In this document: piece after piece, positions 1-11,540 of the stretch
Layout: the number at the start of each line of letters is the position of its first letter
How positions within the stretch are numbered: the first letter of the stretch is position 1
Assembly (NCBI GenBank): GCA_002480735.1
Contig: DLCS01000224.1
Coordinates: 1 to 11,540 of the forward strand
DNA from: Bacillaceae bacterium UBA7792
Lineage (GTDB): Bacteria; Bacillota; Bacilli; Bacillales; Cytobacillaceae
Length of the DNA: 11,540 nt
Reading direction: 5' to 3'
Notes under the pieces: generated by a model
Seen by the model: only the letters and a program-made list of their open reading frames with translations
The model's database searches: none
What the model was told of the DNA's origin: nothing
Position numbers and translations under genes: made by a program

Positions 1-710
1 ACTAAATAGCGAAGAGCCAACAAATTAAATTTGGGCTGTACCTTTTCCCCTAGCACAGTAAAGGTTGGAAGTTTTTTAGTTATTGCTGAGCTTGTATTTA
101 TTTCGTTTAATGCTTGAATAGGTCCTACTTTTTTATTCACATTCACACCATAATCAATTGTTTCAGAAACAACCATAACTCCCACGATTAACATAAGCAT
201 AGTTGCTGCTGATGCAACAAGTTTCTTAAAGTTAAGCTTAGAATAAAATCCTACTCTATATCCCACAAATCCTATCATTGCGCCTAATGTATTAGATATT
301 ACGTCCATAATATCAAATGTACCCAAGAAAGTTAAAGATTGCAACACTTCTAAAAATAAAATCACTGATATAAATAATGCTATAAACTTTCTAAAACGCA
401 CTGGATACATCAATGGAATTACTATTCCAAAAGGGATAAAGGCAGCAATGTTTCCAAAATCGTATAACCATGACATAGTTAGTTCTGGAAACCTTAGTGG
501 GATTCCTTCTGGGACAATCATAAATGTATACTGATTATAATCGCTTCTTTGATCTATTCTATTAAACCCCAAGAACATGAAATACAATACTAAAATTGTA
601 TATACAACGGTTCCTATAAGAATATATATACGTAATTTATCCTTCATAACCTCGGAACTATTCGCTAACACTTCATTGCCCTTTAGGATTTCTTCTTGTT
701 CGTTTTTCAC
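1..710 (-). CDS. VanZ-family membrane protein (3' end beyond window)
   Basis: An open frame runs from a GTG at 708-710 to the left edge, giving 236 codons with no stop, so the C-terminus is missing. The start was chosen because GGAG lies 9 nt upstream; an in-frame TTG at 714-716 is too close to that site. After a hydrophilic N-terminus of about 27 residues there is a membrane segment (RIYILIGTVVYTILVLYF), then the VanZ-like core: NIAAFIPFGIVIP, a further hydrophobic helix containing FLEVLQ, then FDIMDVISNTLGAMIGF, and one more membrane segment (near LMLIVGVMVV). A soluble, probably extracytoplasmic, tail follows. VanZ proteins are integral membrane proteins; VanZ of Tn1546 gives low-level teicoplanin resistance by an unclear mechanism. 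The gene lies downstream of the vanR-vanS-carboxypeptidase genes in the same direction, but 370 nt away. Family assignment is solid; a role in glycopeptide response is inferred from context. Confidence 0.85.
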   Translation of the reverse strand, partial: MKNEQEEILKGNEVLANSSEVMKDKLRIYILIGTVVYTILVLYFMFLGFNRIDQRSDYNQYTFMIVPEGIPLRFPELTMSWLYDFGNIAAFIPFGIVIPLMYPVRFRKFIALFISVILFLEVLQSLTFLGTFDIMDVISNTLGAMIGFVGYRVGFYSKLNFKKLVASAATMLMLIVGVMVVSETIDYGVNVNKKVGPIQALNEINTSSAITKKLPTFTVLGEKVQPKFNLLALRYL

Positions 711-1011
711 AATCAAAATCTCCTTTCAAATAATATCACAGACTTTATCTCTTTTATTAGAGTATGACCCCCGGAGATGTGTATTCCACCTATCTTGTCA
801 ACTCAACCTCTTGTCATCAAATAAATCTCATCAACCTACCCGTTATCTAATCTATCCACTCAACCCTACCACTTTTATGGCGATTGATATGCTTCCACGA
901 ACTAAAAAGTAAGAATTTCCTAACATTGGTAACTCCGTTTTAATACCCGCATTTTACTCAATGTCGGTAAATCTTTTATATATGGGTATTTTTAAATTTC
1001 TATTTCTCCTC

Positions 1012-1040
1012 CCTACCGTGTTTTTGGCACTATCGGTAGG
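1012..1040. repeat. 7-bp inverted repeat / stem-loop CCTACCG...CGGTAGG
   Basis: CCTACCG at 1012-1018 is perfectly complementary to CGGTAGG at 1034-1040, with a 15-nt loop. Neither strand has a T-run directly after the stem, so it is not a standard Rho-independent terminator. It could be a leader structure or an operator for the VanZ-family gene, or part of the 3' end of the carboxypeptidase transcript. Its function is unknown. Confidence 0.4.
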
Positions 1041-1055
1041 TGGAAACATATCAAC

Positions 1056-1072
1056 ATCTTAATAAAATCTTA
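1056..1072 (-). promoter_or_regulatory. Possible second VanR-type box (two TAAGAT repeats, 11-bp period)
   Basis: On the minus strand TAAGAT occurs at 1067-1072 and again at 1056-1061, exactly 11 bp apart. This matches the TAAGAA/TAAGAA/TAAGAT pattern with 11-bp period in front of the carboxypeptidase gene. OmpR-family regulators such as VanR bind tandem direct repeats of about this period. The pair lies just after the carboxypeptidase stop and upstream of the VanZ-family gene, but about 345 bp from that start, in AT-rich sequence where such hexamers can arise by chance. Confidence 0.3.
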
Positions 1073-1080
1073 TAAAAAAC

Positions 1081-2058
1081 TTATTGTTTCCCGATACTAT
1101 TGTATACAGCTAATGCATCGGTAATATTATATTGTTCAGAATAGATATCTCCTTTTGCACCAGCTGTAATCAATATATATTCTTGGTGACCCACTTTTGC
1201 AAGACTCGCAAGACACAGACCAGCTTCATCGGTATATCCAGTTTTCCCTCCTAAAATTTCTCCATCAATAATGTTTTGATTGTTGAGTTTTTCAAACATG
1301 GTATTGTTAAAGGTTATCCCTCCAGGGTGCTTATTCGTGGGTTGTGTGGAATGACGAGATGAAGTAAAAATTTCCCTGAAAGTATCATTTTGCAAAGCAT
1401 AGCTTAGAAGAACAGCCAGATCTTTCACTGTTGTGTAGTGGTTTTCATTGTGAAGTCCGGTGGTATTTTCAAAATGAGTGTTGTCCATCCCTAGATCTGC
1501 CGCCTTTTGATTCATCATCGTTACAAAATTTTGCTCCGAACCAGCAATATGATCCGCAAGACCAATACAAGCTTCTGCACCACTTCGAAGCATCACACCG
1601 TATAAAAGATCAATAGCCCTAACCTTCTCACCTGGCTGGAAACCAGCCATAGAAGCATTGGAACTATAAAGACCATTAAAGGTATAATGGGTTAGTTGTA
1701 TTTCTTTCTGCAAATTTGTTAAATTTTCTATTGCAACAATAGCTGTCATCATTTTAGTTAACGAAGCAGGATAGATCTTTTCTTCGCTACTTTTTTGCAT
1801 CAGAATATTTTGATCTTCTAAACGAATTAGGATCGCATTAGTACTGTTTAGTTTATCGAGAGATATAGAAACAGAGGAATCGGGTTCTATATCTGACGAG
1901 GGAATAGGCGTTGTTTTATCGACATATTCTTTCTCAAACTCATGTTGGTTTCCCGGAGTAATAATGAATTTGAAAACAAAAGCAAAAACAACTACTATCA
2001 ATAAAAATATTACAAATTCGCGTATTCCTGACTTTTTCTTTTTTATTTTTCGTACCAT
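1081..2058 (-). CDS. Membrane-anchored serine-type D-Ala-D-Ala carboxypeptidase (VanY-D-like, peptidase S11)
   Basis: This 325-residue protein is predicted to remove the terminal D-Ala from peptidoglycan pentapeptides outside the membrane. A basic N-terminus (RKIKKKKSG) is followed by a hydrophobic segment at about residues 14-34, most likely an uncleaved anchor. The S11 fold is shown by the nucleophile motif S99-L-T-K102 (YPASLTKMMTAIVAIE) and the K272-T273-G274 box (LGGKTGYTDEAG). The usual S-x-N second motif reads S159-G-A here (RSGAEA), so the Asn is replaced by Ala; I do not know how common this is in the family. The ATG has AAGGAGGT 7 nt upstream. It follows vanS by 91 nt, a gap holding a probable VanR box. 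The vanD operon has the same order, vanR-vanS-vanY with a serine-type, penicillin-sensitive VanY, but then continues with vanH, ligase and vanX, none of which is seen here. A housekeeping DacF/PBP5-type enzyme is the alternative. Confidence 0.88.
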   Translation of the reverse strand: MVRKIKKKKSGIREFVIFLLIVVVFAFVFKFIITPGNQHEFEKEYVDKTTPIPSSDIEPDSSVSISLDKLNSTNAILIRLEDQNILMQKSSEEKIYPASLTKMMTAIVAIENLTNLQKEIQLTHYTFNGLYSSNASMAGFQPGEKVRAIDLLYGVMLRSGAEACIGLADHIAGSEQNFVTMMNQKAADLGMDNTHFENTTGLHNENHYTTVKDLAVLLSYALQNDTFREIFTSSRHSTQPTNKHPGGITFNNTMFEKLNNQNIIDGEILGGKTGYTDEAGLCLASLAKVGHQEYILITAGAKGDIYSEQYNITDALAVYNSIGKQ

Positions 2059-2065
2059 AATAAAT

Positions 2066-2073
2066 ACCTCCTT
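2066..2073 (-). promoter_or_regulatory. Strong ribosome binding site of the carboxypeptidase gene
   Basis: AAGGAGGT on the minus strand, 7 nt before the ATG at 2056-2058. It fixes the start, and it indicates efficient independent translation rather than coupling to vanS. Confidence 0.8.
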
Positions 2074-2087
2074 ATTCTGCGTGAAAT

Positions 2088-2154
2088 TATTTAACCACAG
2101 AACAAGAGGTTATGTTGGAATTCAATCTTATGAACTTCTTAAGATTTTCTTAAG
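2088..2154 (-). promoter_or_regulatory. Probable VanR-activated promoter region: three contiguous 11-bp direct repeats
   Basis: Read on the minus strand, three contiguous 11-mers begin in the last codons of vanS: CTTAAGAAAAT (2144-2154), CTTAAGAAGTT (2133-2143) and CATAAGATTGA (2122-2132). The vanS stop codon lies in the first. An 11-bp tandem period is typical of OmpR/PhoB-family binding, placing subunits on one helix face. Downstream is a weak -10-like TAAATA (2088-2093) without a good -35, as expected of an activator-dependent promoter. The simplest reading is that phosphorylated VanR activates the carboxypeptidase gene here. The repeats are plain in the sequence; the regulator assignment is inferred from the neighbouring vanRS. 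Confidence 0.6.
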
Positions 2155-3295
2155 ACGGAAGCTTTACTGTAAATGTAGTATTTTCCGGGTTGCTTTCTAC
2201 AGAAATCGTTCCATCGTGAGCTGTGACAATTTCTTTTGCGATTGCCAAACCTAGCCCTGCTCCACCGGTGTTTGAGGAGCGTGCAGCATCTAATCGGTAA
2301 AATTTTTCAAAAATAGTATCAATCTTTGTCTGTGGAATTGGATTTCCCTGGTTCATAAAAGCTATAACAATATTTTCGTCCTGCTGCCATGCAGAAATAT
2401 CAATGACACTATTTTCATCGCTATAGGCTATGGCATTTTTCAGAATATTATTGAATACACGGGCTAGTTTGTCTGCATCTCCCCACAGAGTGAGTCCGTC
2501 AGGCACATTGACAGATATCTGCTTTCCCTGTGGAGCCAGCATTGGATAGAATTCATCTGCCATTTGCTGGAGCATGAACAGTAAATTGATTTTTTCTTTA
2601 TTCAAAACAATAGTTTGAAGATTGAATCTTGTGATCTCGAAAAACTCATTGATAAGCTGTTCTAATCGATAAGCTTTTTCCAAAGTAATACCGACATATT
2701 TTGATTTCTGTTCAGGAGGCATATCAGGAGCTTCATCCAGAAGACTTAAGTACCCTATAACGGATGTAAGGGGTGTCTTTATATCATGAGCCAAATAAAC
2801 GACCAAATCATTTTTGCGCTGTTCGGCATCAAGTGCAGCTTTTTTTTGCTTTTCCAAGTTGTTTTTTATTTGATTAAGCTTATTTTCCATAAAATCCAAT
2901 TCCGGTGATAATGTAATTTCATCATTGGATTCCTCAACAAGTTTATCCATTCCACTACCTATTTCATCAAAATATTTAGTAAACCACGAAATTGAAAATC
3001 TAAGCAAAATAATTAATAAGATGATGATCACAATAAGTGTAATAAGCTCTTTATTATAAAGAAAAATATACCGATAAATTATTACAGCATCGCTTTCACT
3101 CAAATAAAACTTATTCTTTAAAAATTCTACAATACTCTCTCCAATATTGAAATTGTCTTGAATTACATCACGCAAAAAAATAACAGTTGCGATCGTGGCA
3201 AAAACAATAAGGAGCACTCTAAAAAATACTTTTCTTTTTAATTTTGTATAATCATTGTTTCTCTTATCTCTGTCACTTTTCAATTTTATAACCAA
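2150..3295 (-). CDS. vanS: VanS-type sensor histidine kinase
   Basis: This membrane histidine kinase is expected to sense glycopeptide or cell-wall stress and to control VanR phosphorylation. The start is taken as the TTG at 3293-3295, not the upstream in-frame codon at 3340, because the resulting N-terminus (VIKLK, then NDYTKLKRK) matches VanS of the vanA operon as I remember it, and GGGGG lies just upstream. This gives 381 residues, close to the 384 of VanS-A. Two membrane helices lie at about 22-41 and 84-100, enclosing a short external loop of some 40 residues. Then come a linker with coiled-coil character (about 135-165), the H-box LAHDIKTPL with phosphoacceptor H170, the N-box NNILKNA (282-288) and the glycine-rich GGAGLGLA (344-351). 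It overlaps the end of vanR by 23 nt in another frame, implying translational coupling. All key motifs are intact. The ligand specificity cannot be read from the sequence. Confidence 0.93.
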   Translation of the reverse strand: MVIKLKSDRDKRNNDYTKLKRKVFFRVLLIVFATIATVIFLRDVIQDNFNIGESIVEFLKNKFYLSESDAVIIYRYIFLYNKELITLIVIIILLIILLRFSISWFTKYFDEIGSGMDKLVEESNDEITLSPELDFMENKLNQIKNNLEKQKKAALDAEQRKNDLVVYLAHDIKTPLTSVIGYLSLLDEAPDMPPEQKSKYVGITLEKAYRLEQLINEFFEITRFNLQTIVLNKEKINLLFMLQQMADEFYPMLAPQGKQISVNVPDGLTLWGDADKLARVFNNILKNAIAYSDENSVIDISAWQQDENIVIAFMNQGNPIPQTKIDTIFEKFYRLDAARSSNTGGAGLGLAIAKEIVTAHDGTISVESNPENTTFTVKLPS

Positions 3296-3971
3296 CCCCC
3301 CATACCGTTTTGATATATTTAGGATTTTCCGCGCTATCACCCATTTTTTCTCTTAAATGTCGAATATGAACCATTACCGTATTATTGCTGTTACTAAAAT
3401 ACTTGTCTCCCCATACCTCGCGGAACAATTCTTCAGAACTTACCACTCGTCCTCGATTGGAACAAAGAACCCAAAGAATAGAAAACTCCGTAGGTGTAAG
3501 CGATAACTTTTTCTCATTCAGCGTACATTCACGAGCATCCATGTCTAACACCAAGCCGGAAAAGGCAATCAAGCGTTCTTCCTGTTTTTGCTCTGGAGAA
3601 TTATATTTGGTAAATCTTCGGAGCTGCGCCTTTACACGAGCAACTAATTCCAAAGGACGGAATGGTTTAGTGATATAGTCATCGGCGCCTAATGTCAGCC
3701 CGGTAATCTTATCGATTTCTTCTTCTTTAGCTGTCAGCATAATAATCGGAAAATTATGTTTTTCCCTAATCTTCCGACAGATAGTAAAACCATCAATATC
3801 TGGCAGCATAACATCAAGTATCGCAAGCTCCAACTGTTTCGACTCAACACATCGAAACGCATCTTGACCGTTATAAAATTTGTATACTGTAAAACCTTCA
3901 TTTTTTAGATAAACTTCAATTAGATCTGCTATAGCTTGTTCATCGTCAACAACTAAAATATTGATACTCAT
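3273..3971 (-). CDS. vanR: VanR-type response regulator (OmpR/PhoB family)
   Basis: This 232-residue regulator has an N-terminal receiver domain (about 1-118) and a C-terminal winged-helix DNA-binding domain (about 130-232). Visible receiver residues are the acidic pair D9-D10, phosphoacceptor D53 (LAILDVMLP), T80 (IIMLTAKE) and K102 (DDYITKPFRPLELVARVKAQ). The TKPFRPLEL and RVKAQLRR stretches strongly recall VanR proteins. The winged helix shows LTPTEFSILWVL and the terminal KTVWGVGYKIEK. The ATG at 3969-3971 follows GAAGAAGGG. The gene begins 18 nt after the DUF1413 gene and ends overlapping vanS, so the three probably form one transcript from the promoter at 4280-4308. Its likely target is the run of 11-bp repeats before the carboxypeptidase gene. 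The close VanR resemblance makes glycopeptide-type signalling likely, but the effector genes are not the classical ones. Confidence 0.93.
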   Translation of the reverse strand: MSINILVVDDEQAIADLIEVYLKNEGFTVYKFYNGQDAFRCVESKQLELAILDVMLPDIDGFTICRKIREKHNFPIIMLTAKEEEIDKITGLTLGADDYITKPFRPLELVARVKAQLRRFTKYNSPEQKQEERLIAFSGLVLDMDARECTLNEKKLSLTPTEFSILWVLCSNRGRVVSSEELFREVWGDKYFSNSNNTVMVHIRHLREKMGDSAENPKYIKTVWGVGYKIEK

Positions 3972-3989
3972 AAATTTTATCCCTTCTTC

Positions 3990-4232
3990 CTACTTGCCAA
4001 TTGTCTTTTTATACCTCTGCTGGTTAGATGAGGTCTTTTCAATTGCCTTTATATTACCTTCTATTTTATTTACGTAGTTTAAAAATAAAGTCCCAAGCAG
4101 AAGTCGATCCTTTCTGGGTATTCTATTCCATACATAACCCTTGAACAGGTCCTTAACAAGAAAGGCTTCACCTACATTCAAGTTTTCAGTTTCCTTAATA
4201 GCTTGTTCTAGTAACTCATTAACATCGCCCAT
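3990..4232 (-). CDS. Small DUF1413-family protein, first gene of the vanRS transcript
   Basis: An 80-residue protein with no signal peptide or membrane segment. Its core, GEAFLVKDLFKGYVWNRI followed by RLLLGTLFLNYV, fits the DUF1413 pattern (flexible start, F-x-V/L-K-D-L-F, W, then LG-x-x-F-x-x-x-V). The family is of unknown function and occurs in Firmicutes; some members have been seen near plasmid or mobile genes, so a nucleic-acid-related role is possible but unproven. The C-terminus is basic (NQQRYKKTIGK). The ATG at 4230-4232 has AAGGAGAT 6 nt upstream and a near-consensus promoter further up. It precedes vanR by 18 nt. It is not VanU, the small helix-turn-helix protein that leads vanG operons; no such fold is visible. 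Whether it affects VanRS signalling is open. Confidence 0.75.
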   Translation of the reverse strand: MGDVNELLEQAIKETENLNVGEAFLVKDLFKGYVWNRIPRKDRLLLGTLFLNYVNKIEGNIKAIEKTSSNQQRYKKTIGK

Positions 4233-4251
4233 GTTGTCATCTCCTTATCAA

Positions 4252-4274
4252 TAACAATATCAACAACATTGTTA
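4252..4274. repeat. Perfect 7-bp inverted repeat in the DUF1413-vanRS leader
   Basis: TAACAAT at 4252-4258 and ATTGTTA at 4268-4274 are exact inverted copies separated by 9 bp, lying just downstream of the -10 and before the ribosome site. This placement suits a repressor operator or a small leader hairpin. The sequence does not resemble the 11-bp TAAGAW repeats, so it is unlikely to be a VanR site. AT-rich composition makes chance occurrence possible. Confidence 0.4.
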
Positions 4275-4279
4275 ATAAG

Positions 4280-4308
4280 ATTATATACACACTACTAACT
4301 TTTTTCAA
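4280..4308 (-). promoter_or_regulatory. Near-consensus sigma-A promoter for the DUF1413-vanR-vanS genes
   Basis: On the minus strand, TTGAAA (4303-4308), a 17-bp spacer, then a perfect TATAAT (4280-4285). It lies directly after the hairpin terminator of the protease gene, so the regulatory genes are insulated from upstream transcription. The good hexamers and the lack of TAAGAW repeats suggest mostly constitutive expression of the sensor system, unlike the carboxypeptidase gene. Confidence 0.75.
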
Positions 4309-4310
4309 TT

Positions 4311-4358
4311 ACAAAATAAAAACCGCCAACCAAAAGAATTTATATCCTGATTAACGGT
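4311..4358 (-). terminator. Rho-independent terminator after the protease gene (hairpin copy 1)
   Basis: On the minus strand ACCGTTAATC pairs with GGTTGGCGGT (10 pairs, several G-U), extends inward with one mismatch to a TAAAT loop, and is followed by TTTTTATTTTG. It lies 14 nt past the stop of the DUF2268 gene. The sequence at 4318-4360 is a near copy (39/43 by eye) of that at 6124-6166. Confidence 0.75.
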
Positions 4359-4360
4359 CA
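4318..4360. repeat. 43-nt direct repeat, copy 1 (other copy at 6124-6166)
   Basis: Aligned by eye with 6124-6166, this stretch is identical at 39 of 43 positions without gaps; the differences all fall in hairpin stem positions. The two copies enclose the MerR regulator and the DUF2268 protease gene, about 1.8 kb apart. Both act as probable terminators. They may be members of a dispersed terminator family, the trace of a duplication, or the edges of an inserted module. Confidence 0.7.
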
Positions 4361-4372
4361 CAAATGAGTTAT

Positions 4373-5269
4373 TTATTTTGTAAATAGTTCGCAATTGTAT
4401 AATATTTCCTTTGTATCAAGTAAGGTAGCTTCTTCTATTCCTACATTATTGACTTTCATAAAGGATTGTACCGCTTGGTAACCCACTGCATAACCAGCAA
4501 ATGGTGATAAGCCAACAGGTTGATAGCCCTGTTCTTTTGCAATAGTGTCACCAAACATATAACTACTAACCTCAGCAAATCCTTTAACATCTAGTGACTC
4601 CTTTATTATCTCTGTTGAATATTCCAAGTCCTCTTTGTCAAAAGAAGTAACCCAAGGTCCTAAAAATTCATCACCATACAGTTCTCTTGCAAAAGACTCT
4701 GCCAACCCCTCTATAATTAAGTAATCACCAACAGTAACGTTCCCATGATCCCAATCAAAATATGAAAAACGGATATTATGATGAAATTCATGTGCAATTA
4801 CAGCAGGTATCTTCGGAATATTATAGGAATTAGGATAAATAGATACTTGAATAAAACCTGGGATTCCACCGAACCCACAATATCCCTTTTGCAATTCGAG
4901 CTTTTTTGGATCAGCTATATACATTCCAAATTTTAACTCATCGGCATTTATTTTCAGATTATTTTTTTGAATAAAATTAACACAGGTCTTCAAAGTGTCA
5001 TAGGCAGTTTGAAGAGCTTGAATTTCTTTTAGCTTCTCTAACGCAATCTTTCCAGTTTCGGTATTTGATATATCAAGGTAACCAAGCATTTTTGTAGCCA
5101 TTATTACGTCGTATCCATTAGGTTGATTTGCCTTTAATGGAACGTTAATGATATTCCACATTTTTTCAAAGGGCTTCATCATTGAATATCGATAGAAGTC
5201 TTCTTTCTCTTCTTCCATACTAAATAATTTTTCATATTGTTTGATTGTATCTTCAATTATTATTTGCAT
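4373..5269 (-). CDS. Putative Zn-dependent protease, DUF2268 family
   Basis: A 298-residue protein with the zincin motif HEFHH at residues 160-164 (VIAHEFHHNIR), which fits the HExxH metal site with E161 as catalytic base. A second acidic motif, EGLAESFA (E187, E191), lies about 23-27 residues later and may supply the third ligand. This arrangement and the PGFIQVSIYP stretch before it match DUF2268 'predicted Zn-dependent protease' proteins. There is no signal peptide or membrane helix, so a cytoplasmic site is expected. The ATG at 5267-5269 was chosen because AAAGGTGG lies at a good distance; an in-frame GTG at 5278 overlaps that site. The start overlaps the end of the MerR-family gene by 17 nt, so the two are co-transcribed and probably translationally coupled. 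The substrate is unknown; protease activity is inferred from the motif. Confidence 0.8.
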   Translation of the reverse strand: MQIIIEDTIKQYEKLFSMEEEKEDFYRYSMMKPFEKMWNIINVPLKANQPNGYDVIMATKMLGYLDISNTETGKIALEKLKEIQALQTAYDTLKTCVNFIQKNNLKINADELKFGMYIADPKKLELQKGYCGFGGIPGFIQVSIYPNSYNIPKIPAVIAHEFHHNIRFSYFDWDHGNVTVGDYLIIEGLAESFARELYGDEFLGPWVTSFDKEDLEYSTEIIKESLDVKGFAEVSSYMFGDTIAKEQGYQPVGLSPFAGYAVGYQAVQSFMKVNNVGIEEATLLDTKEILYNCELFTK

Positions 5270-6029
5270 TGCTACCACCTTTCTTCTTTTGATTTACTGA
5301 AAAAATTTTCATTGCCTCACTCATAAACTTGGCCAATCCTTCACTATACTGATCAATGTTTTGTGTAAAGCGTTCATCTTCAATATAGAGTTGACCTAAT
5401 CCTTGGAAGGCATCAAGAGAATACTTACCAAAATTCTTATTTAAAAAGTCATACCATTCTTTAATCGTTTTTTGTACTTCTTGCGAGTTAGGAGAATAAT
5501 TGCGAAGTTGTACAAGTTTATTGAAAATCACATCCCAATTTTGAGATAAATCTTGTTGTTCATCTATAGCCATGTCTCTTAATTTTGCGCTTATCTCATC
5601 AACAGGTTGATCCCCCCAACGCATGCGAGCCTCTTGTTCATACTGGTTGAGTCTAAAGTTAATACCCTCAAACCTTTCTTCGTTCGACATTTTAATTTCT
5701 CCCATCGTGTGTTTAATCGTTTTATCAATGGTTTCAATCATTTTATCGACTCTATTTCGTTTCTCAATTAACATTTTCCGTTGTAAGATTAACGCTTCCT
5801 GTTGATTAAATGAAGGGCTATTGATAATCGTTTTAATCTCCTTCAAGGAGAAATCAAGCTCTCTGAAAAATAAAATTTGCTGTAATTTTTCAAGATCCTC
5901 TTCAGAATAAAGCCGATAGCCAGAATAGGTGGTTTCTTTTGGAGTTAATAACCCAATCTGATCATAATGATGAAGTGTACGAACACTAACACCAACCAAT
6001 TCAGCTACTTCTTTTACTTTCATACTCAT
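5253..6029 (-). CDS. MerR-family regulator with TipAS-like ligand-binding domain
   Basis: A 258-residue regulator. The N-terminal winged helix-turn-helix (about 1-75) is typical MerR: VKEVAELVGVSVRTLHHYD, then GLLTP, SGYRLYSEEDL and ILFFRELDFSLKEI. A long dimerisation helix follows (about 78-112). The C-terminal part (about 118-245) looks like the TipAS antibiotic-recognition domain, with NQYEQEARMRWGD at about 128-140. TipA and Mta proteins activate their own promoters and linked genes on binding drugs or other ligands. The first ATG (6027-6029) is preferred over the ATG two codons later because AAGGAGGT lies 11 nt upstream. Its own promoter has the 19-bp spacer that MerR proteins act on. 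The overlapping DUF2268 gene is thus the probable regulated output. The C-terminus is hydrophilic (KKKGGSNANNN). The inducer is unknown. Confidence 0.9.
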   Translation of the reverse strand: MSMKVKEVAELVGVSVRTLHHYDQIGLLTPKETTYSGYRLYSEEDLEKLQQILFFRELDFSLKEIKTIINSPSFNQQEALILQRKMLIEKRNRVDKMIETIDKTIKHTMGEIKMSNEERFEGINFRLNQYEQEARMRWGDQPVDEISAKLRDMAIDEQQDLSQNWDVIFNKLVQLRNYSPNSQEVQKTIKEWYDFLNKNFGKYSLDAFQGLGQLYIEDERFTQNIDQYSEGLAKFMSEAMKIFSVNQKKKGGSNANNN

Positions 6030-6056
6030 GCCTTATATGCACCTCCTTCAGTTGTC

Positions 6057-6087
6057 ATTATAAAGTATCACGTAACGTAAGGGTCAA
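6057..6087 (-). promoter_or_regulatory. MerR-type promoter with 19-bp spacer and operator dyad
   Basis: On the minus strand, TTGACC (6082-6087), a 19-bp spacer, then TATAAT (6057-6062). Within the spacer TTACG and CGTGA form an imperfect dyad around TTA. An over-long 19-bp spacer with a central dyad is the hallmark of promoters that MerR-family activators untwist. It lies 27 nt before the MerR-family start codon, so autoregulation of the regulator-protease pair is expected. Confidence 0.8.
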
Positions 6088-6123
6088 TAGTTAAATGAGG
6101 TAATTCAAACCCTGATCTTGCAG

Positions 6124-6164
6124 AAAAACCACCAACCAAGAGAATTTATCTCCTGATTGACGGT
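6124..6164 (-). terminator. Rho-independent terminator after the recombinase genes (hairpin copy 2)
   Basis: On the minus strand ACCGTCAATC pairs with GGTTGGTGGT, and the stem continues with AGGAGA against TCTCTT around a TAAAT loop. That makes about 16 pairs including G-U pairs, followed by TTTTT from the repeat's A-run. It begins 12 nt past the stop of the last recombinase gene and separates the recombinase transcript from the MerR-type promoter. Confidence 0.78.
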
Positions 6165-6166
6165 CA
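6124..6166. repeat. 43-nt direct repeat, copy 2 (other copy at 4318-4360)
   Basis: The partner of the copy at 4318-4360, with 39 of 43 positions identical by eye. It lies at the presumed outer edge of the recombinase-carrying element, so it also marks a candidate region for the attachment site. Serine recombinase att sites usually share only a very short core, which argues against both copies being att halves. Confidence 0.7.
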
Positions 6167-6176
6167 GCCACCAATG

Positions 6177-7748
6177 TTATATTTCTACATCTATCTCAAT
6201 CCCAGACTTGAATTCAACAGTGAGCTTATCTTCATATATCGTTACCTTTTCAATCAGCCGCCTTACCAACTGCTCATCATATTCCTCCAACCCGCAGGAC
6301 TGTTCATTCAAGAAATCATTCATTTCAGCGATTCGTTGCCTTTTCCCTTCTCGCTCTGCATTTTCAACCAGTGCATTTTGCTTCAATTCTCGAAGGCGGT
6401 AAATTTCATCAGCCACATCTTCATAGTCATTCTTTGACTTTGCTTGTATAAGAAGCTGTTGCTGTAATTCTTCCAATTTGCCATCAATATCATCGGTGGC
6501 AGTATCATTTTCTTCATTTAATATAGTAGCGATATTTATCTGCAACGTTGAGAGAAAGGATTCTTTTTTAGCCAAAAGGTCGTTAATAGCCTTGACCACC
6601 GCTGTCTGCAACGTTTCCTCGTTTATGGTAGGGGCAGTGCATTCAGACCCTCTTTCCTCCAATCGGCTGACGCATCTCCAAACAATAGACTTGTAGCCTC
6701 GGTTATTCCAATGTACCCGTCGGTAAATATCGCCGCAGTGTCCGCAGTAAACAATACTCGATAAAGCATACTTGCTGCTATAAACTCTCTTTTTACCCCT
6801 TTTCCCGCCACGAAGATTGGCTCTTCGAACCATCTCTTCTTGAACCTGCATAAAAAGGTCTCGTGGAATGATAGGCTCATGGCTGTTTTCAACATAATAC
6901 TGGGGAACGATGCCGTTATTCTTGACCCGCTTTTTAGAAAGGAAATCAACCGTATAAGTCTTTTGTAGAAGGGCATCACCGATGTACTTTTCATTCTGCA
7001 GTATCTTTTTCAGTGTTTCAGGTCTCCATTTAGATTTGCCTGCCGCTGTAAGAATACCGTCTGTTTCCAGCCCTCTTGCTATCTGTAAAAGGCTTGCTCC
7101 CTCAAGGTACTCTCTGTAAATCCGTTTAACAACCTCAGCACCCTTTGGTTCAATCACTAGCTGCTTATTTTCATCCTTGGTGTATCCAAGGAAACGCTTG
7201 TGGTTGACTTGGACTTCACCTTGCTGATATCTATACTGAATACCCAGCTTTACGTTCTGGCTTAAGGACTGACTTTCCTGTTGGGCAAGGGATGCCATGA
7301 TGGTCAGCAATACTTCACCCTTAGAATCCATGGTGTTGATATTCTCTTTCTCGAAGAATACCGCGATGTTTTTATCCTTTAACTGACGGATGTATTTAAG
7401 GCAATCCAACGTGTTTCTGGCAAATCGGCTGATGGATTTTGTGATAATCATGTCAATTTTTCCTGCCATACATTCTTCAATCATGCGGTTGAACTCTTCA
7501 CGCTTCTTGGTATTTGTACCTGTGATGCCGTCATCTGCAAAAATACCTGCCAGTTCCCATTCCTTGTTCTTCTTAATATATTTTGTATAATGCTCGATCT
7601 GAATTTCATAACTTGAAGCCTGCTCTTCACTATCCGTTGAAACACGACAGTAAGCAGCCACTCGTATTTTGGGTTTGCTTTCACTATTTTTATTATTTCC
7701 AACCCGTTTAATTGCCGGAATCACTGTTACATTCCTACTTACCGCCAC
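6177..7748 (-). CDS. Large serine recombinase (third gene of the recombinase set)
   Basis: A 523-residue serine recombinase, the class that integrates and excises phages and transposons. The resolvase-type catalytic domain (about 26-175) has the nucleophile S37 in [10 protein letters not shown], and downstream [12 protein letters not shown] and FFEKENINT. The Recombinase domain follows (about 185-300; GRKSKW-like AGKSKW and NEKYIGD), then a zinc ribbon with C335, C338, C359 and C370, and a coiled-coil-rich tail (about 400-480). The start is the GTG at 7746-7748, with GAGGTG 7-8 nt upstream. The gene begins 3 nt after the middle recombinase gene, so the genes are co-transcribed. Length and motifs are complete, so it should be active. 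It shares many motifs with the first recombinase and is a paralogue. Which of the two performs integration cannot be told. It is the last gene of the element before the terminator. Confidence 0.93.
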
Positions 7749-7751
7749 TTG

Positions 7752-8165
7752 TTACACCTCACTTTCTATCAGACTGTAAGCATATTCCGCCTGCTTGTAT
7801 GGATCTTCATATTTTTGCACCAGAGGTTTTACTTTGAACTTTACAGGGTAATCCCTTACCGGTTCATCTTTAGGCTCCCATATCCTTCCGAGCTTTTCTG
7901 CTCGTTTTCGTTTTTCTACTCTGGCTTTTTCAAAGGTCTCTTCATCAATAATTGGAGGGTAGAATTCATCGCCCAAGTAATGCTTGTTCTGCAACATCTT
8001 ACTTGCTGTGGCATGGTAGCAGTCTATCCCAGCTTTTTTAGTAGCACCCTTCAAAGAAAGTCCTGCCAAGTATCCTGAAAATAATTCTTTTACTTGTTCT
8101 GCTGCTATTTCATCTACAACAGCCTTTCCATCTTCAATTCTATATCCATAGGGTGTGTGACCCAT
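7752..8165 (-). CDS. Short recombinase-like protein lacking the catalytic domain
   Basis: A 137-residue protein that matches only a piece of the large serine recombinase DNA-binding region (Recombinase domain): it opens with PYGYRIEDGKAVVDE, followed by GLSLKGATKKAGI, MLQNKHYLGDE and PPIIDEETFEKA. There is no resolvase domain, no nucleophilic serine motif and no zinc ribbon, so it cannot cut DNA itself. Its ATG directly follows the stop of the first recombinase (TAG then ATG with no gap), and the third recombinase starts 3 nt after its stop. The frame is intact, ends cleanly and has its own distinct C-terminus (VQKYEDPYKQAEYAYS), so it looks like a maintained gene rather than decay. A DNA-binding accessory or directionality role is inferred. 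Similar short genes between two large recombinases occur in other Firmicute elements, from memory. Confidence 0.82.
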   Translation of the reverse strand: MGHTPYGYRIEDGKAVVDEIAAEQVKELFSGYLAGLSLKGATKKAGIDCYHATASKMLQNKHYLGDEFYPPIIDEETFEKARVEKRKRAEKLGRIWEPKDEPVRDYPVKFKVKPLVQKYEDPYKQAEYAYSLIESEV

Positions 8166-9728
8166 CTAATTCACCAACCTTTCCTTCAATGTGATTCCAC
8201 ATTTTAATTCAAATCCAACTTCCTCTCGTGAAAATACCATAATCTTTTCTACGTAATTTTCAAACAGCTCATCCTCATAGGCTGTAAGCATTTGGGACTT
8301 AGTTGCAAACTTAAGCAGACGGTCAACCTCTTCAACTTTTGTAAAATTCCCATTGACGGAACGAGTAAGTTGATCCTTTTCGACAAGAAGCCTTTCTCTT
8401 TCTGCTTCCAATGAATTCTTTTCTTTATTAAACAGAGCAGGTTCCAGACACCCTTTGGCCATTAAACCCGTCAGCATCTGGCTCTGCTCCATGTTGTTTT
8501 CAATCCTAGTTTCCAATTCTTCAATTCTGCGAAAACTTGCCGCATTGTTCTGGTTACGTAACCCATTCAAAAGTGGTCTTAATATGAATTTCTGACCGAA
8601 AATGAGTTTATTCATCATCGTAACAAAAGCAGTCTTTATATCTTCATCTCGAATGAACTGCATAGAACATTCCGTTATATTGCCTATATGCTTACTACAG
8701 CACCAAGCGACGTATTTTCTTCCAGATGAATGAATTCGTCTTTTAAAGGTACTGCCACATTCCGAGCAAATAATTTTGCCAGAAAAGGAATATCGGTTTT
8801 GATATTTACTGTTGCGCTTTTCGATGCCTTTTTCCTTTGCTCTCTGATTAAGAATGGCATCTACTGCTTCAAAATCCTCATGGCTGATAATTGCCTCATG
8901 ATGGTTTTCTACTAGATACATATTTTTCTCACCATAATTGGTGTGCCTGTTAAAATGGCTGTCAGTATAAGTCTTTTGCAAAATAACATCGCCAGTATAT
9001 TTTTCATTGGTCAGAATCCCTCTAATCGTAGTAGCTGTCCAACGACCTCCTCTTTTTGAAGGGATACCCTTTTGATTAAGATCATTTGCAACTTTCTGTG
9101 TGCCTTTGCCCGATAATACCTCTGCAAAAATATACTTCACAATTTCTGCTTGCTCAGGATTTACCACCATTTGACCGTCAATGTTGTCATAACCATATGG
9201 TGGGTATGAAATCTTAAAAGTTCCGTTCTGAAATCTCCTTTGAATTGCCCACTTGTTATTTTCCGAAATGGAGATTGACTCACTTTCTGCAAGCCCGCTT
9301 AATATAGAAAGCATCAGTTCACTTTCCATTGATTGGGTATTGATATTCTCTTTCTCAAAGTAGATATAAATCCCAAGGTCCAACAGTTTACGAACCATCT
9401 CCAAACAATCCGTAGTGTTTCTTGCAAACCTACTAATGGACTTTGTAATAATTAAGTCAATCTTCTTGTTTTCACAATCTGACAGCATTCTTAGAAGTTC
9501 CGTTCGGTTTTCTTTTTTAGTGCCACTAATTCCCTCATCATAATACAAGCCAACATACTCCCATTCTGGGTTTGCCTTTATGTAAGTCTCATAATGGGAT
9601 TTTTGTGCTTGTAGACTTACTAACTGTTCATCACTACCCGTAGAAACACGACAGTATGCGGCCACTCGTAGTTTAGGTTTGATAATCGATGCAACCTTAT
9701 TTCCTTCTATTTTCGTTATCTTTTTCAT
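8166..9728 (-). CDS. Large serine recombinase (first gene of the recombinase set)
   Basis: A 520-residue serine recombinase starting at the ATG at 9726-9728, which has AGGAGG 7 nt upstream; a longer frame from 9755 is rejected because it would contain that ribosome site. The catalytic domain (about 18-165) has nucleophile S29 in AAYCRVST, then [19 protein letters not shown] and YFEKENINT. The Recombinase domain (about 175-290) contains PPYGYDNIDG, GGRWTATTIRGIL and NEKYTGD. The zinc ribbon uses C321, C324, C343 or C344, and C354. A charged helical region (about 385-450) is probably the coiled coil. It follows the SHOCT gene by 61 nt and abuts the short middle recombinase. All expected domains are present and of normal length. 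With its paralogue downstream it forms a two-recombinase system, reminiscent of ccrA/ccrB and of the recombinase sets in streptococcal mef elements. Confidence 0.93.
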   Translation of the reverse strand: MKKITKIEGNKVASIIKPKLRVAAYCRVSTGSDEQLVSLQAQKSHYETYIKANPEWEYVGLYYDEGISGTKKENRTELLRMLSDCENKKIDLIITKSISRFARNTTDCLEMVRKLLDLGIYIYFEKENINTQSMESELMLSILSGLAESESISISENNKWAIQRRFQNGTFKISYPPYGYDNIDGQMVVNPEQAEIVKYIFAEVLSGKGTQKVANDLNQKGIPSKRGGRWTATTIRGILTNEKYTGDVILQKTYTDSHFNRHTNYGEKNMYLVENHHEAIISHEDFEAVDAILNQRAKEKGIEKRNSKYQNRYSFSGKIICSECGSTFKRRIHSSGRKYVAWCCSKHIGNITECSMQFIRDEDIKTAFVTMMNKLIFGQKFILRPLLNGLRNQNNAASFRRIEELETRIENNMEQSQMLTGLMAKGCLEPALFNKEKNSLEAERERLLVEKDQLTRSVNGNFTKVEEVDRLLKFATKSQMLTAYEDELFENYVEKIMVFSREEVGFELKCGITLKERLVN

Positions 9729-9732
9729 CGCC

Positions 9733-9742
9733 TCACCTCCTT
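9733..9742 (-). promoter_or_regulatory. Ribosome binding site that fixes the start of the first recombinase
   Basis: AAGGAGGTGA on the minus strand lies just before the ATG at 9726-9728 and inside the longer alternative frame. It is the reason for choosing the 520-residue form. Confidence 0.8.
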
Positions 9743-9789
9743 CTTGGTAGGTCACATATTACCTCTGAAACCCTTATATATCAACGATT

Positions 9790-10026
9790 TCAGGGCATTA
9801 TCTCTGCTAAAAAAGGAGAGAAAGTTTGGCGATTGAGTGCGTCTATCTTGTTGAATTCTGCCTCCGTTATTAAACCTTTTTTGAGCATCTTTCTAAGTAA
9901 TTTCTCTGCTTGAATATAATCAAACTCACGCTGTAGCTGCTCCTGTGACATTTTCTTTAATTCGATGCTTTTGTCTATAACCCCATCTGAGATCTTCATA
10001 ACTTTTTTATCCTCATGCTGATTCAC
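9790..10026 (-). CDS. Small SHOCT-domain protein preceding the recombinases
   Basis: A 78-residue protein with no membrane segment. Residues 41-65 (EKLLRKMLKKGLITEAEF, then NKID) match the SHOCT motif, a short helical segment usually at protein ends and thought to aid oligomerisation. The preceding part (KKMSQEQLQREFDYIQAEK) is a charged helix. The conserved-looking end (RQTFSPFLAEIMP) resembles small proteins found directly upstream of recombinase genes in Firmicute prophages and conjugative elements, from memory. The start is GTG at 10024-10026, with AGGAGG 9-10 nt upstream. It lies 61 nt before the first recombinase and after a strong terminator, so it probably heads the integration transcript. 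An accessory role in recombination is guessed from position only. Confidence 0.75.
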   Translation of the reverse strand: MNQHEDKKVMKISDGVIDKSIELKKMSQEQLQREFDYIQAEKLLRKMLKKGLITEAEFNKIDALNRQTFSPFLAEIMP

Positions 10027-10104
10027 GTAGAATCACCTCCTACCTAATAGCCGCGGGAACAGGTCGAAGTTGAGGATTTGTAAAAATAAAATAAAATCAG
10101 AGCA
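10027..10104 (-). promoter_or_regulatory. Presumed promoter region of the SHOCT-recombinase genes
   Basis: This gap lies between the terminator after the endolysin gene and the SHOCT ribosome site, so a promoter is expected. I see only weak elements: an AT-rich stretch next to TTTACA, a CCGCGG palindrome near 10051-10056 (minus strand CCCGCGG) and a CTATTA that could be a poor -10. No convincing -35/-10 pair was found, which may mean a regulated promoter or read-through past the terminator. Confidence 0.3.
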
Positions 10105-10142
10105 TAAAAAAAGAGCCTGCAAGGGAATAACCCCCACAGGCT
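10105..10142 (-). terminator. Strong Rho-independent terminator after the endolysin gene
   Basis: On the minus strand AGCCTGTGGGGG pairs with CCCTTGCAGGCT (12 pairs, three of them G-U) around a TTATT loop, followed by CTTTTTTTATG. It lies about 80 nt past the endolysin stop and separates the late phage transcript from the integration module. Nothing else was recognised between 10143 and 10221. Confidence 0.9.
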
Positions 10143-10221
10143 ATATACATCTAATAGTTAATATTTTTAGGGAAACTCTGTAAAGCTAAAGCATAATTGC
10201 TTATTTACTCGCTCCCCTTGA

Positions 10222-10923
10222 TTAATCATACTTAATAAATGCATCCGTAAATCCTGCCTTTTTAGCTTTTGCAAGCTGTGCCTCAGCATTTGCTTTGACA
10301 GTGTATGCACCTATTTGTACACGATAGTATTTCTTTTTCGCTGGTTCTGCTGATTTTACTCCTTCACTTAGAAGTTTCTTAACATCTGCTCTAAAGGTAT
10401 CCATGGTCTTGCCATGCTTAGGAAACCAGTGCATAACATCCGCATGGCTACTGGCTATACCTTGTTTATAGCCTTCACTATGACAGATGATATCCTTCTC
10501 ACTTAGTCCATAGAGTTTGCAAAGATGTACACAAAGCTCCACTGCTTCCTTATAAACAGCAGAAAAATACGAGGCATCGGTTAGACCGTCCTCGCAAATT
10601 TCAAAACCTATATGGGTATTATTCGCATCCCCTCCAGCATGCCAACCACGATGATTCCAAGGCAATGTTTGGTATGTGGCAATGGAGCCATCTGCTAACT
10701 TACCAATAAAAGAATGGACACAAACTTGACGACCTCCGGGTTTATCCTGATTCCAATGATTGTTGTATTGGTTCTTTCCGAGCAAACCGTCATCTGGACC
10801 AACATATCTCTTCAACCACGGGTTGTTAGCCCCTGTTGAGTGAATCATTATACCCTTCGGTTTTATTGTTTTGCCTGCTTTGTAGCAGGCATTGTTCGTA
10901 AGTATTAGTTTGTATAATTTCAT
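10222..10923 (-). CDS. Phage endolysin: N-acetylmuramoyl-L-alanine amidase with C-terminal SPOR-like segment
   Basis: A 233-residue lysin that should cut the amide bond between N-acetylmuramic acid and L-alanine in peptidoglycan. The amidase_2 domain (about 20-185) shows H28 (KGIMIHSTG) as probable zinc ligand, E108 (HIGFEICED) and the cluster HSEGYKQGIASSHADVMHW with H148 and H160, followed by HGKTMDTFR. The last 36 residues (from YYRVQIGAYTVKANAEAQL) resemble the first half of a SPOR peptidoglycan-binding domain, which suggests a reduced wall-binding tail. There is no signal peptide, as expected for a holin-dependent lysin. The ATG at 10921-10923 is preferred over the GTG at 10932 because GAGGTG overlaps the latter. 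It starts 17 nt after a presumed structural gene. No holin gene is seen in the window. A bacterial wall amidase is less likely given the position beside the recombinases. Confidence 0.9.
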   Translation of the reverse strand: MKLYKLILTNNACYKAGKTIKPKGIMIHSTGANNPWLKRYVGPDDGLLGKNQYNNHWNQDKPGGRQVCVHSFIGKLADGSIATYQTLPWNHRGWHAGGDANNTHIGFEICEDGLTDASYFSAVYKEAVELCVHLCKLYGLSEKDIICHSEGYKQGIASSHADVMHWFPKHGKTMDTFRADVKKLLSEGVKSAEPAKKKYYRVQIGAYTVKANAEAQLAKAKKAGFTDAFIKYD

Positions 10924-10940
10924 TATAATCACCTCAACAT

Positions 10941-11540
10941 TTAATCATTTGGCTCAGGTGTAAGATGGACAGGGTACAGGTGATAGGTAAACTTTAAATC
11001 ACAATAAGCATTTGATGATGTTCCATCACTTCCCATACAGATATACAGTCCATAACCGGCTGGAACTCTGGCCTGCCGCATTTGAATATGAATGTGCAAG
11101 GATTCTGCTGAAGTATTCGATCCGACAGGTGTACTCCGTTGAATTCTAGTGAACGTCTCCTCATCATTGGAAATATACAAGTCCAGTTCCTTTTCACTAG
11201 TATCCGATTGACGACAAAGAGTTATCAAATGGCAATCATAAGCCGTCGTATACAATTCTCCGCCCTGACCGCCAATAACCACACTATTAATAGGTAATAT
11301 CGTGTGCAAAGGACCACGGACACTGTTTGCACCGCCTGAACCCGAGACATTACCCGACAAAATATATCTTGAATAGGCCGAACGGGTGAAGTCACTAATA
11401 ATAGCCGTTGCTGTGGATGAGAGAGGTATTGCGGAAGTCACATTTTCTGCTCTTTCAAGTAGAAAAAGGCTCTCACCTGCCTCAACGGTGGTACTACCTA
11501 TGGAAAACCTCTGACTTGTCCAGTAAGCTGTACAAATTGG
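10941..11540 (-). CDS. Unrecognised protein, probably phage structural (5' end beyond window)
   Basis: An open frame of 199 residues plus stop enters from the right edge; an internal GTG at 11439-11441 could be mistaken for a start, but the frame stays open upstream with similar composition. The visible C-terminal part is rich in Ser, Thr and Gly, with no membrane segment: for example FSIGSTTVEAGESLFLLERAE, LSGNVSGSGGANSVRGP and a final FTYHLYPVHLTPEPND. This has the feel of a beta-rich particle-surface protein. I do not recognise the family. Its position 17 nt before the endolysin gene in the same direction suggests a late phage gene, such as a tail-tip, fibre or baseplate-associated protein, but that rests on context alone. 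Confidence 0.55.
   Translation of the reverse strand, partial: PICTAYWTSQRFSIGSTTVEAGESLFLLERAENVTSAIPLSSTATAIISDFTRSAYSRYILSGNVSGSGGANSVRGPLHTILPINSVVIGGQGGELYTTAYDCHLITLCRQSDTSEKELDLYISNDEETFTRIQRSTPVGSNTSAESLHIHIQMRQARVPAGYGLYICMGSDGTSSNAYCDLKFTYHLYPVHLTPEPND

What the first reader, a model, noticed from the sequence alone, without database searches (positions are those of the whole stretch)
1..4232. Van-type sensor pair wired to a carboxypeptidase and VanZ, with no ligase genes
vanR, vanS and a serine-type VanY are in the order of the vanD operon, but the next gene is a VanZ-family protein and there is no vanH, ligase, vanX, vanXY or vanT between them. The cluster could be a decayed vanD-like operon, an ancestral precursor from which resistance operons arose, or a separate defence in which D-Ala trimming and VanZ alone respond to wall-active agents.
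Basis: partly seen in the sequence, partly recalled or inferred. Interest (0 to 1): 0.7.

Follow-up and report, generated by a model that had tools for sequence, protein, structure and literature searches.

The report
Ligase-free VanRS–VanY carboxypeptidase module, partly decayed
A bacterium carries the vancomycin sensor pair and one accessory cell-wall enzyme but not the genes that make resistant cell wall; this looks like the living remainder of a bigger operon, and two soil bacteria with a similar ligase-free set are recorded as drug-sensitive.

Summary
In detail: open vanR, vanS, a serine-type (S11) vanY, then a VanZ-family gene, with no ligase, vanH or vanX beside them. VanR and VanS belong to the Van family. 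Of 80 vanY relatives, 55 carry vanR-vanS-vanY and 49 of those show no ligase in the stretch held. vanY sits behind a VanR-type promoter with the geometry of PvanH of Tn1546: four half-sites 11 bp apart, -10 inside a hairpin loop; here the hairpin's other arm holds vanY's ribosome site. Just after vanY lies the stump of a second such promoter (P2), which in relatives drives vanHAX. Five close relatives stop matching the window right behind it. So the window is best read as a vanRSY(-HAX) operon that lost its ligase cassette but keeps a regulated vanY under purifying selection. VanZ stands beyond this scar without a VanR promoter; it is VanR-wired only in other lineages. Desulfosporosinus orientis and D. 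meridiei carry open ligase-free vanZ-vanRS-vanY behind such promoters, yet published vancomycin and teicoplanin MICs are below 1 µg/ml. 'Decayed' is favoured, 'ancestral' is not, and a stand-alone glycopeptide defence is doubtful. Promoter function and VanY activity are inferred, not measured.

The parts
3..716 (-). vanZ-family gene, cut by the contig end (the J37 orthologue is 328 aa); no VanR-type promoter found before it
   Evidence: PF04892 71.8 bits; L050 copy; box scan and upstream sequence
1021..1022 (.). break: the DNA of 5 close relatives stops matching the window here
   Evidence: blastn matches of L049, L051, L052, L054, L055 end at window 1021-1022; mobile-element-like 93-bp sequence on the relatives' side
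1046..1073 (-). P2 stump: first two half-sites of a second VanR-type promoter, third half-site damaged, -10 and hairpin gone
   Evidence: P2 alignment score 26, shuffle maximum 18; box scan only 13.3 bits, where the training boxes score 26 or more; comparison with relatives; best match to the published VanR consensus 8 of 12, not notable
1081..2058 (-). vanY, serine-type (S11) D,D-carboxypeptidase; SxxK, SxN and KTG motifs and one N-terminal membrane anchor by eye (motifs recalled)
   Evidence: PF00768 172.4 bits; translation; dN/dS 0.13 against J37
2066..2110 (-). leader hairpin: the loop holds the -10, the 3' arm holds the vanY Shine-Dalgarno
   Evidence: RNA fold -19.1 kcal/mol, z -5.47; 32 distinct sequences, 96.0% of cells paired against 42-58% when slid
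2089..2094 (-). -10 of P1 (TTAAAT), 59 bp after the first half-site
   Evidence: alignment of 42 promoters
2115..2153 (-). P1 VanR box: half-sites starting at 2153, 2142, 2131, 2120 (11-bp steps)
   Evidence: its only place in the own genome at up to 2 mismatches; holds the window's only site with 11 of 12 matches to the published VanR consensus
2150..3340 (-). vanS sensor kinase (longest frame); 56% identical to VanS-A of Tn1546 over 381 aa
   Evidence: NF033091 408.1 bits; blastp
3273..3971 (-). vanR response regulator; 68% identical to VanR-A
   Evidence: NF033117 421.8 bits; tree
3990..4232 (-). DUF1413 gene before vanR, role unknown
   Evidence: PF07205 86.3 bits; also directly before vanR in L050, L052, L055
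4280..4308 (-). sigma-A-like promoter TTGAAA-17-TATAAT before DUF1413-vanRS
   Evidence: 11 of 12 matches, best of 15 sites; 15.1 sites expected by chance at the threshold; no box in the genome search

Best explanation
The locus is a live sensor-effector remainder of a vanRSY-HAX type operon. Shown by sequence: open Van-family vanR and vanS; an open S11 carboxypeptidase gene; a conserved VanR-type promoter (P1) before vanY; a stump of a second such promoter (P2) after vanY, next to the point where five close relatives stop matching; no ligase or VanX found. Inferred: VanS senses glycopeptide or wall stress; VanR-P activates P1 from half-sites reaching the -35 region; transcription starts at the hairpin's loop, so the induced message lacks the 5' arm and vanY is translated, while read-through from vanRS folds and hides the ribosome site; VanY removes the terminal D-Ala of stem pentapeptides outside the membrane. 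The ligase cassette behind P2 was lost by recombination with mobile DNA, and VanZ came to lie beyond the scar. By itself the module probably gives tolerance or wall-stress adjustment rather than MIC-level resistance.
For: Families. VanR in one Van branch (63 rows, against 26 other regulators, support 97, quick tree). P1 in 41 of 80 relatives plus the window; in the six diverged pairs with a value the 39-bp box keeps 90-95% identity where third codon positions keep 62-80%. Same geometry in Tn1546 PvanH, -10 at +59. Published VanR consensus matched 11 of 12 and 10 of 12 in neighbouring P1 repeats; one site of 11 or more among 23,058 places in the window; Tn1546 PH and PR, on which that consensus rests in part, also reach 11. 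Hairpin. Box found once in the genome. P2. VanW fossils in L056 and L060. One ligase kind. dN/dS against J37: vanR 0.10, vanS 0.22, vanY 0.13. No ligase or VanX. Phenotype of ligase-free carriers.
Against: The genome is 82% complete and the contig ends inside vanZ. Ligase state on the RSY tree needs 7 changes among 50 rows, as scattered as shuffled labels (185 of 500 as low), so repeated gain is not excluded. In one search ligase identities do not follow the RSY identities closely (L069-L061: ligase 94, vanS 80), so cassettes may have been swapped. The P2 stump is weaker in kin: J37 scores 18.0, L051 and L054 16.5, not above the highest shuffle. vanS against L052 gives dN/dS 1.32 on only 6 changes, and vanY against L049 0.44. 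L090 and L092 do not form the P1 hairpin and L091 only weakly. In the slid control a shift of -3 gives more pairs with a change on both sides (5) than the structure itself (4), and 41 of 500 shuffles reach the number of pair types. No expression, binding or enzyme data exist here.
Confidence: 0.7

Rival explanations
1. A separate defence: VanRS induces VanY and VanZ, which together protect against glycopeptides without a ligase.
For: VanZ occurs in 19 of 80 relatives. In 10 loci it is divergent from vanY behind a conserved VanR-type promoter, and in L068 and L074 it lies upstream behind one (by eye). VanZ is reported to confer lipoglycopeptide resistance without precursor change (PMC7146870, start of abstract in the listing). 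vanR, vanS and vanY are under purifying selection against J37 and L055.
Against: In the window VanZ has no such promoter and lies past a DNA break; of the 7 closest relatives (L049-L055) only J37 has it. D. orientis and D. meridiei carry vanZ-vanRS-vanY in open frames with boxes and have MICs below 1 µg/ml for both drugs.
Confidence: 0.15
2. Ligase-free vanRSY is the ancestral platform, and ligase cassettes were added several times behind P2.
For: 42 of 50 scored rows lack a ligase and 7 changes suffice on the tree. Different cargo sits behind P2: vanHAX, a more distant ligase, transporter-like genes (transporters by eye).
Against: P2 or its remains and VanW fossils in ligase-free loci; the same ligase kind in both halves of the clade.
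Confidence: 0.12
3. A mere wreck: a decaying fragment with no remaining function, kept by recency.
For: L123 has vanY and vanS broken into pieces; L128 is likewise in pieces; P2 is ruined in the window.
Against: Open frames in the window, dN/dS 0.08-0.22 against J37 and L055, P1 identical in 39 of 39 positions in L050, L051, L052 and L054.
Confidence: 0.08
4. Prophage cargo used for phage matters, for example altering stem peptides against other phages or lysins.
For: The cluster stands on one contig with two large serine integrases, an endolysin and tail-like genes. Endolysin or holin homologues also stand upstream in 3 of 5 relatives looked at (L150, L151, L154; not in L152, L153).
Against: Regulation is of the Van type, and the same vanRSY is found in loci where no recombinase of this kind was detected (prophage genes were not searched there).
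Confidence: 0.04

Closest known systems
vanD-type and 'vanRS(YD)HAX' operons of Clostridia (PMC9689679, passages)
   Same: Order vanR-vanS-serine-type vanY; that paper already lists ligase-bearing loci of Anaerobacterium chartisolvens, Candidatus Formimonas warabiya and Paenibacillus sp. YIM B00362, which appear here as L094, L061 and L078
   Different: No vanH, ligase or vanX here; VanY and VanR score far below the VanD-specific cut-offs
Tn1546 vanA operon
   Same: VanR 68% and VanS 56% identical; same promoter geometry at PvanH
   Different: vanA has HAX, a metallo VanY and VanZ-A; the window's VanZ is 30% identical to VanZ-A over 110 aa
Ligase-free vanRS with vanY and/or vanZ in Bacillaceae and Clostridia (PMC11273654, passages)
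   Same: Van sensor pair with accessory genes and no ligase, already reported
   Different: Their vanY group is the vanA/vanM kind; the serine-type version, P1/P2 and hairpins were not in the passages read
VanZ-1 lipocone proteins (PMC12419801, passages)
   Same: VanZ next to a D-Ala carboxypeptidase gene; proposed there to act on lipid head groups
   Different: There discussed with the full resistance operon; function untested
DdcRS-DdcY of Enterococcus faecium (recalled; listing only)
   Same: Two-component system controlling a D,D-carboxypeptidase without a ligase
   Different: DdcY is a metallo enzyme that feeds L,D-transpeptidation (recalled); a YkuD protein is present in this genome but no link is shown

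Membership tests
VanR of the ABDEGLN family | Model score over the curated cut-off, and place inside the Van branch | tested here: met
   421.8 against 350; tree
VanS of the ACDEFG family | Model score over the curated cut-off | tested here: met
   408.1 against 400, marginal
VanD-type operon | VanD ligase with vanH and vanX | tested here: not met
   None in the window; no second full-length ligase and no VanX-family match in the genome held; vanH not searched genome-wide; genome 82% complete
VanD-type operon | VanY-D and VanR-D specific models | tested here: not met
   90.6 against 625; 343.7 against 500
S11 D,D-carboxypeptidase | Peptidase_S11 domain with catalytic motifs | tested here: met
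   172.4 against 27.6; motifs by eye
S11 D,D-carboxypeptidase | Removes terminal D-Ala | not testable with these tools
   Needs an enzyme assay
VanZ (PF04892) | Family score over cut-off | tested here: met
   71.8 against 30.1
VanZ-A | Specific model | tested here: not met
   33.5 against 250; the gene is truncated
VanR-regulated resistance promoter | Geometry of PvanH: half-sites at 0/11/22/33, -10 at 59 | tested here: met
   P1
VanR-regulated resistance promoter | Match to the published 12-bp VanR consensus (PMC4405338, passages) | tested here: met
   P1 repeats match 11 of 12 and 10 of 12; 1 place of 23,058 in the window reaches 11, 18 reach 10; 39 of 42 P1 boxes reach at least 10. The P2 stump reaches only 8
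VanR-regulated resistance promoter | VanR-P binding and induction | not testable with these tools
   Needs footprinting and reporters

The most novel reading that the evidence does not exclude
VanR-controlled genes of this clade are built as self-insulated slots. Each cargo (vanY, vanHAX, vanZ, a more distant ligase, transporter-like genes) has its own copy of one promoter geometry whose -10 often lies inside the loop of a hairpin, so only a message started by VanR-P is productive while read-through from the gene before is hidden or terminated. This would let resistance cassettes be gained, lost and swapped behind an always-ready sensor, and the window is one such sensor platform with its second slot emptied.
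Probability: 0.4. Interest if true: 0.65.

Novelty: new variant of a known kind. Interest (0 to 1): 0.45.

Why it matters
It indicates that the sensor and accessory half of a glycopeptide-resistance operon exists, is under selection and spreads without the resistance-making half, so finding vanR, vanS, vanY or vanZ in a genome should not by itself be called vancomycin resistance. Named, already tested strains give a natural experiment on what VanY and VanZ do without a ligase. The hairpin promoters offer a testable account of how van cassettes stay silent yet exchangeable.

Tried and rejected
Rejected: VanZ as part of the VanR circuit in the window (no box; beyond the break). Rejected for the genome held: a hidden second ligase or VanX. 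Rejected: the box elsewhere in the genome at up to 2 mismatches (the second hit is the same place on the other strand). Left open: the kind of mobile element behind the 93-bp sequence; it looks IS21-like by eye only. Plasmid and phage collections gave no close copy of this vanY (every best place below 60% identity; top-ranked 39% and 52%). PADLOC gave nothing for the four genes tried. Parsimony on ligase state could not give direction. The promoter scan found 15 sites with 15.1 expected, so only the 11-of-12 site is used. L057's ligase lies about 7.7 kb behind vanY and was not followed further. VanS and VanY were not placed in trees with named Van types other than vanA; VanR was placed with VanR-A only.

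Rows dropped: the hairpin count used 35 of 42 boxes; L051, L053, L054, L090, L091, L092 and L105 were not given, and of these L090 and L092 do not form the hairpin, L091 only weakly. In the RSY tree of 56 rows six (L067, L070, L082, L090, L104, L106) got no ligase state because too little sequence behind vanY is held; L123, L043 and L044 were left out. L060 was scored ligase-free because its genome has no VanX-family match. Of the 14 (of 33) more distant vanY promoters with the geometry, five (L099, L100, L102, L108, L112) do not fold so that the -10 lies in a hairpin loop.
Full report
What is there. On the minus strand the window holds, in order of transcription, a MerR/TipAS regulator, a DUF2268 putative protease, a DUF1413 gene, vanR, vanS, a serine-type vanY and a VanZ-family gene cut by the contig end. 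VanR and VanS pass NCBI's Van-family cut-offs, VanS narrowly. VanR is 68% and VanS 56% identical to those of Tn1546. In a quick tree of 89 regulators the 63 van rows, Tn1546 included, form one side of a branch (support 97) against 26 other regulators from the own genome and its relatives; the tool warned of long branches.

No ligase. The own genome has one full-length D-Ala ligase (269 bits), no VanX-family protein, and two unlinked PF02557 proteins. The genome is 81.84% complete and the window begins at the contig end, so absence is not proof. Bacillus sp. J37 (L050) has 95.5% identical DNA across window 19-10053, shows no piece of vanW, vanH, ligase or vanX in the 8 kb behind vanY, and has no VanX-family match in its genome.

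How common. Of 80 vanY relatives (the 80 kept of 83 found), 55 carry vanR, vanS and vanY and 49 of those show no ligase in the stretch held; some stretches are short. Five have a VanA-like ligase with vanX and three a more distant ligase, VanG-like by eye. Of 27 of their genomes searched for the VanX family, 11 had a match; five of these 11 lie in genomes whose vanY locus holds the ligase, and several others are weaker (91-152 bits).

The promoter of vanY. Between vanS and vanY lies a box of four half-sites in 11-bp steps, found in 41 of the 80 relatives plus the window. The TAAG of the first three half-sites is the same in all 42 by construction of the search, but most spacer and fourth half-site positions are also shared by 36-42 of 42. 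In six diverged pairs the 39-bp box keeps 90-95% identity where third codon positions keep 62-80%. The -10 lies 59 bases after the first half-site. Tn1546 PvanH has half-sites at the same four places and its -10 at the same distance, as do 14 of 33 more distant loci. VanR sites are published as 12-bp direct repeats upstream of the -35, one or two in vanA promoters and three in vanG (PMC4405338, passages). Two neighbouring P1 repeats match that consensus in 11 and 10 of 12 places; in the whole window one of 23,058 places reaches 11, and it is this one. Of 42 P1 boxes 39 reach at least 10. Tn1546 PH and PR reach 11, but the consensus rests partly on them. In the own genome the box occurs only here. 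DUF1413-vanRS has a plain sigma-A-like promoter; VanRG likewise does not act on its own promoter.

The hairpin. The -10 sits in the loop of a hairpin whose 3' arm holds vanY's Shine-Dalgarno. The window's folds at -19.1 kcal/mol, z -5.47; Tn1546's at -32.2, z -8.57. In 32 distinct sequences 96.0% of cells pair, against 42-58% when the partner is slid; four pairs change on both sides (6 of 500 shuffles reach this) and the covariation score exceeds all 500 shuffles. Against this, a slide of -3 gives five such pairs, and 41 of 500 shuffles reach the number of pair types. So conservation of pairing is clear and compensatory change is modest. A message started in the loop would lack the 5' arm; this is an inference. 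Two literature searches on hairpins or terminators at PvanH listed no paper that I saw to describe this, and one likely paper is not held. PMC10965585 (passages) reports a deletion in this promoter region in resistant revertants, explained there by other promoters.

The second promoter. Directly after the vanY stop many relatives carry a second copy (P2). Nineteen distinct copies were found, 13 with -10 TAAGAT at +59, most within a terminator-like hairpin; L056 and L123 are broken. P2 precedes vanH in L069, L072 and L094, a more distant ligase in L058, vanX in L169, vanZ in L069, and transporter-like genes (by eye) in L064 and L086. In L056 and L060 VanW fossils stand behind it (E 6e-23 and 3e-14; reversed controls in other loci reached 0.004 at best). 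In the window only the first two half-sites survive: alignment score 26, best of 980 letter shuffles 18; L049 and L052 26, L055 27.5, but J37 18.0 and L051 and L054 16.5. By the box matrix alone the stump is weak (13.3 bits), and by the published consensus not notable; its place directly behind vanY is the main argument. The match to five close relatives ends at 1021-1022. On their side follows a 93-bp sequence that also occurs after an arsC-like gene and after a transporter-like gene, so it looks like the end of a mobile element.

Loss or gain. On a concatenated VanR-VanS-VanY tree, ligase state needs 7 changes among 50 rows (8 with ligase), no better than shuffled labels. This alone fits gain or loss. 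But L061, L069, L072, L077, L094 and L169 share one ligase kind (86-94% identical to each other, 64-66% to VanA), five of them spread over both halves of the clade (L169 is not in the tree), and ligase-free loci keep P2 or its remains. I therefore favour loss in the window's branch, with cassette exchange as a caveat.

Is it alive? Between the window and J37 dN/dS is 0.10, 0.22 and 0.13 for vanR, vanS and vanY, and 0.08, 0.16, 0.17 against L055. vanS against L052 and L054 gives 1.32 and 0.39 on few changes, and vanY against L049 0.44. The uneven synonymous distances (vanS 0.004, vanY 0.138 against L052) suggest a mosaic.

VanZ. It is present in 19 of 80 relatives (L084's is a 119-aa fragment). 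In 10 loci it is divergent from vanY with a conserved TTAAGG-TTAAGA-TATAAT promoter of the same geometry, and in L068 and L074 it lies upstream behind a box (read by eye). L073, L083, L084 and L088 show none. In the window and J37 it lies behind the break with no such promoter.

A natural experiment. D. orientis (L167) and D. meridiei (L168) carry vanZ-vanR-vanS-vanY in open frames with boxes before vanZ and vanY. Each genome has one full-length D-Ala ligase and one VanX-family match, a 104-108-bit stretch in a protein of about 510 aa away from the locus, of a kind also found in G113 beside its true vanX (209 bits). PMC4229326 Table 1 gives vancomycin and teicoplanin MICs below 1 µg/ml for D. 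orientis DSM 765 and D. meridiei DSM 13257. G113, probably D. youngiae, has a second ligase with vanX in the same locus; D. youngiae is resistant in that table. The bound of 1 µg/ml could hide a small effect and other drugs were not tested. The words vanY and vanZ do not occur in that paper.

Verdict. A functional-looking, ligase-free VanRS-VanY module, most likely derived from a ligase-bearing operon, next to prophage integrases. What it works like: VanR-controlled trimming of stem peptides, as accessory VanY does. What it is not: a vanD operon or, on present evidence, a glycopeptide-resistance operon.

Noticed in passing
window 4373-6029: MerR regulator with a TipAS antibiotic-recognition domain overlapping a DUF2268 putative Zn protease gene; the pair stands near vanRSY in L050, L051 and L055, and partly L054. 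Possibly a second drug-responsive unit.
   Followed up: no
window 6177-11540 and contig beyond (L042): Two full large serine integrases (phrog_95), a third recombinase fragment, an endolysin and tail-like genes: a prophage integrase end beside the van cluster. Endolysin or holin homologues also upstream in 3 of 5 relatives.
   Followed up: partly
L057, L061 (also L064, L082): A block of permease-like and transporter-like genes (by eye) follows P2; in L057 and L061 a second P2 copy follows the block, as if it had been inserted at P2.
   Followed up: partly
L123 and L128: vanS and vanY in pieces with vanZ still open: decay in progress.
   Followed up: no
L145, L148, L142: The 93-bp sequence behind vanY also lies after arsenic-resistance-like genes and a transporter-like gene.
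   Followed up: partly
L049 7842-8000: A 97% identical vanY without P1 or vanRS beside it, joined just before the -10 region to other DNA.
   Followed up: no
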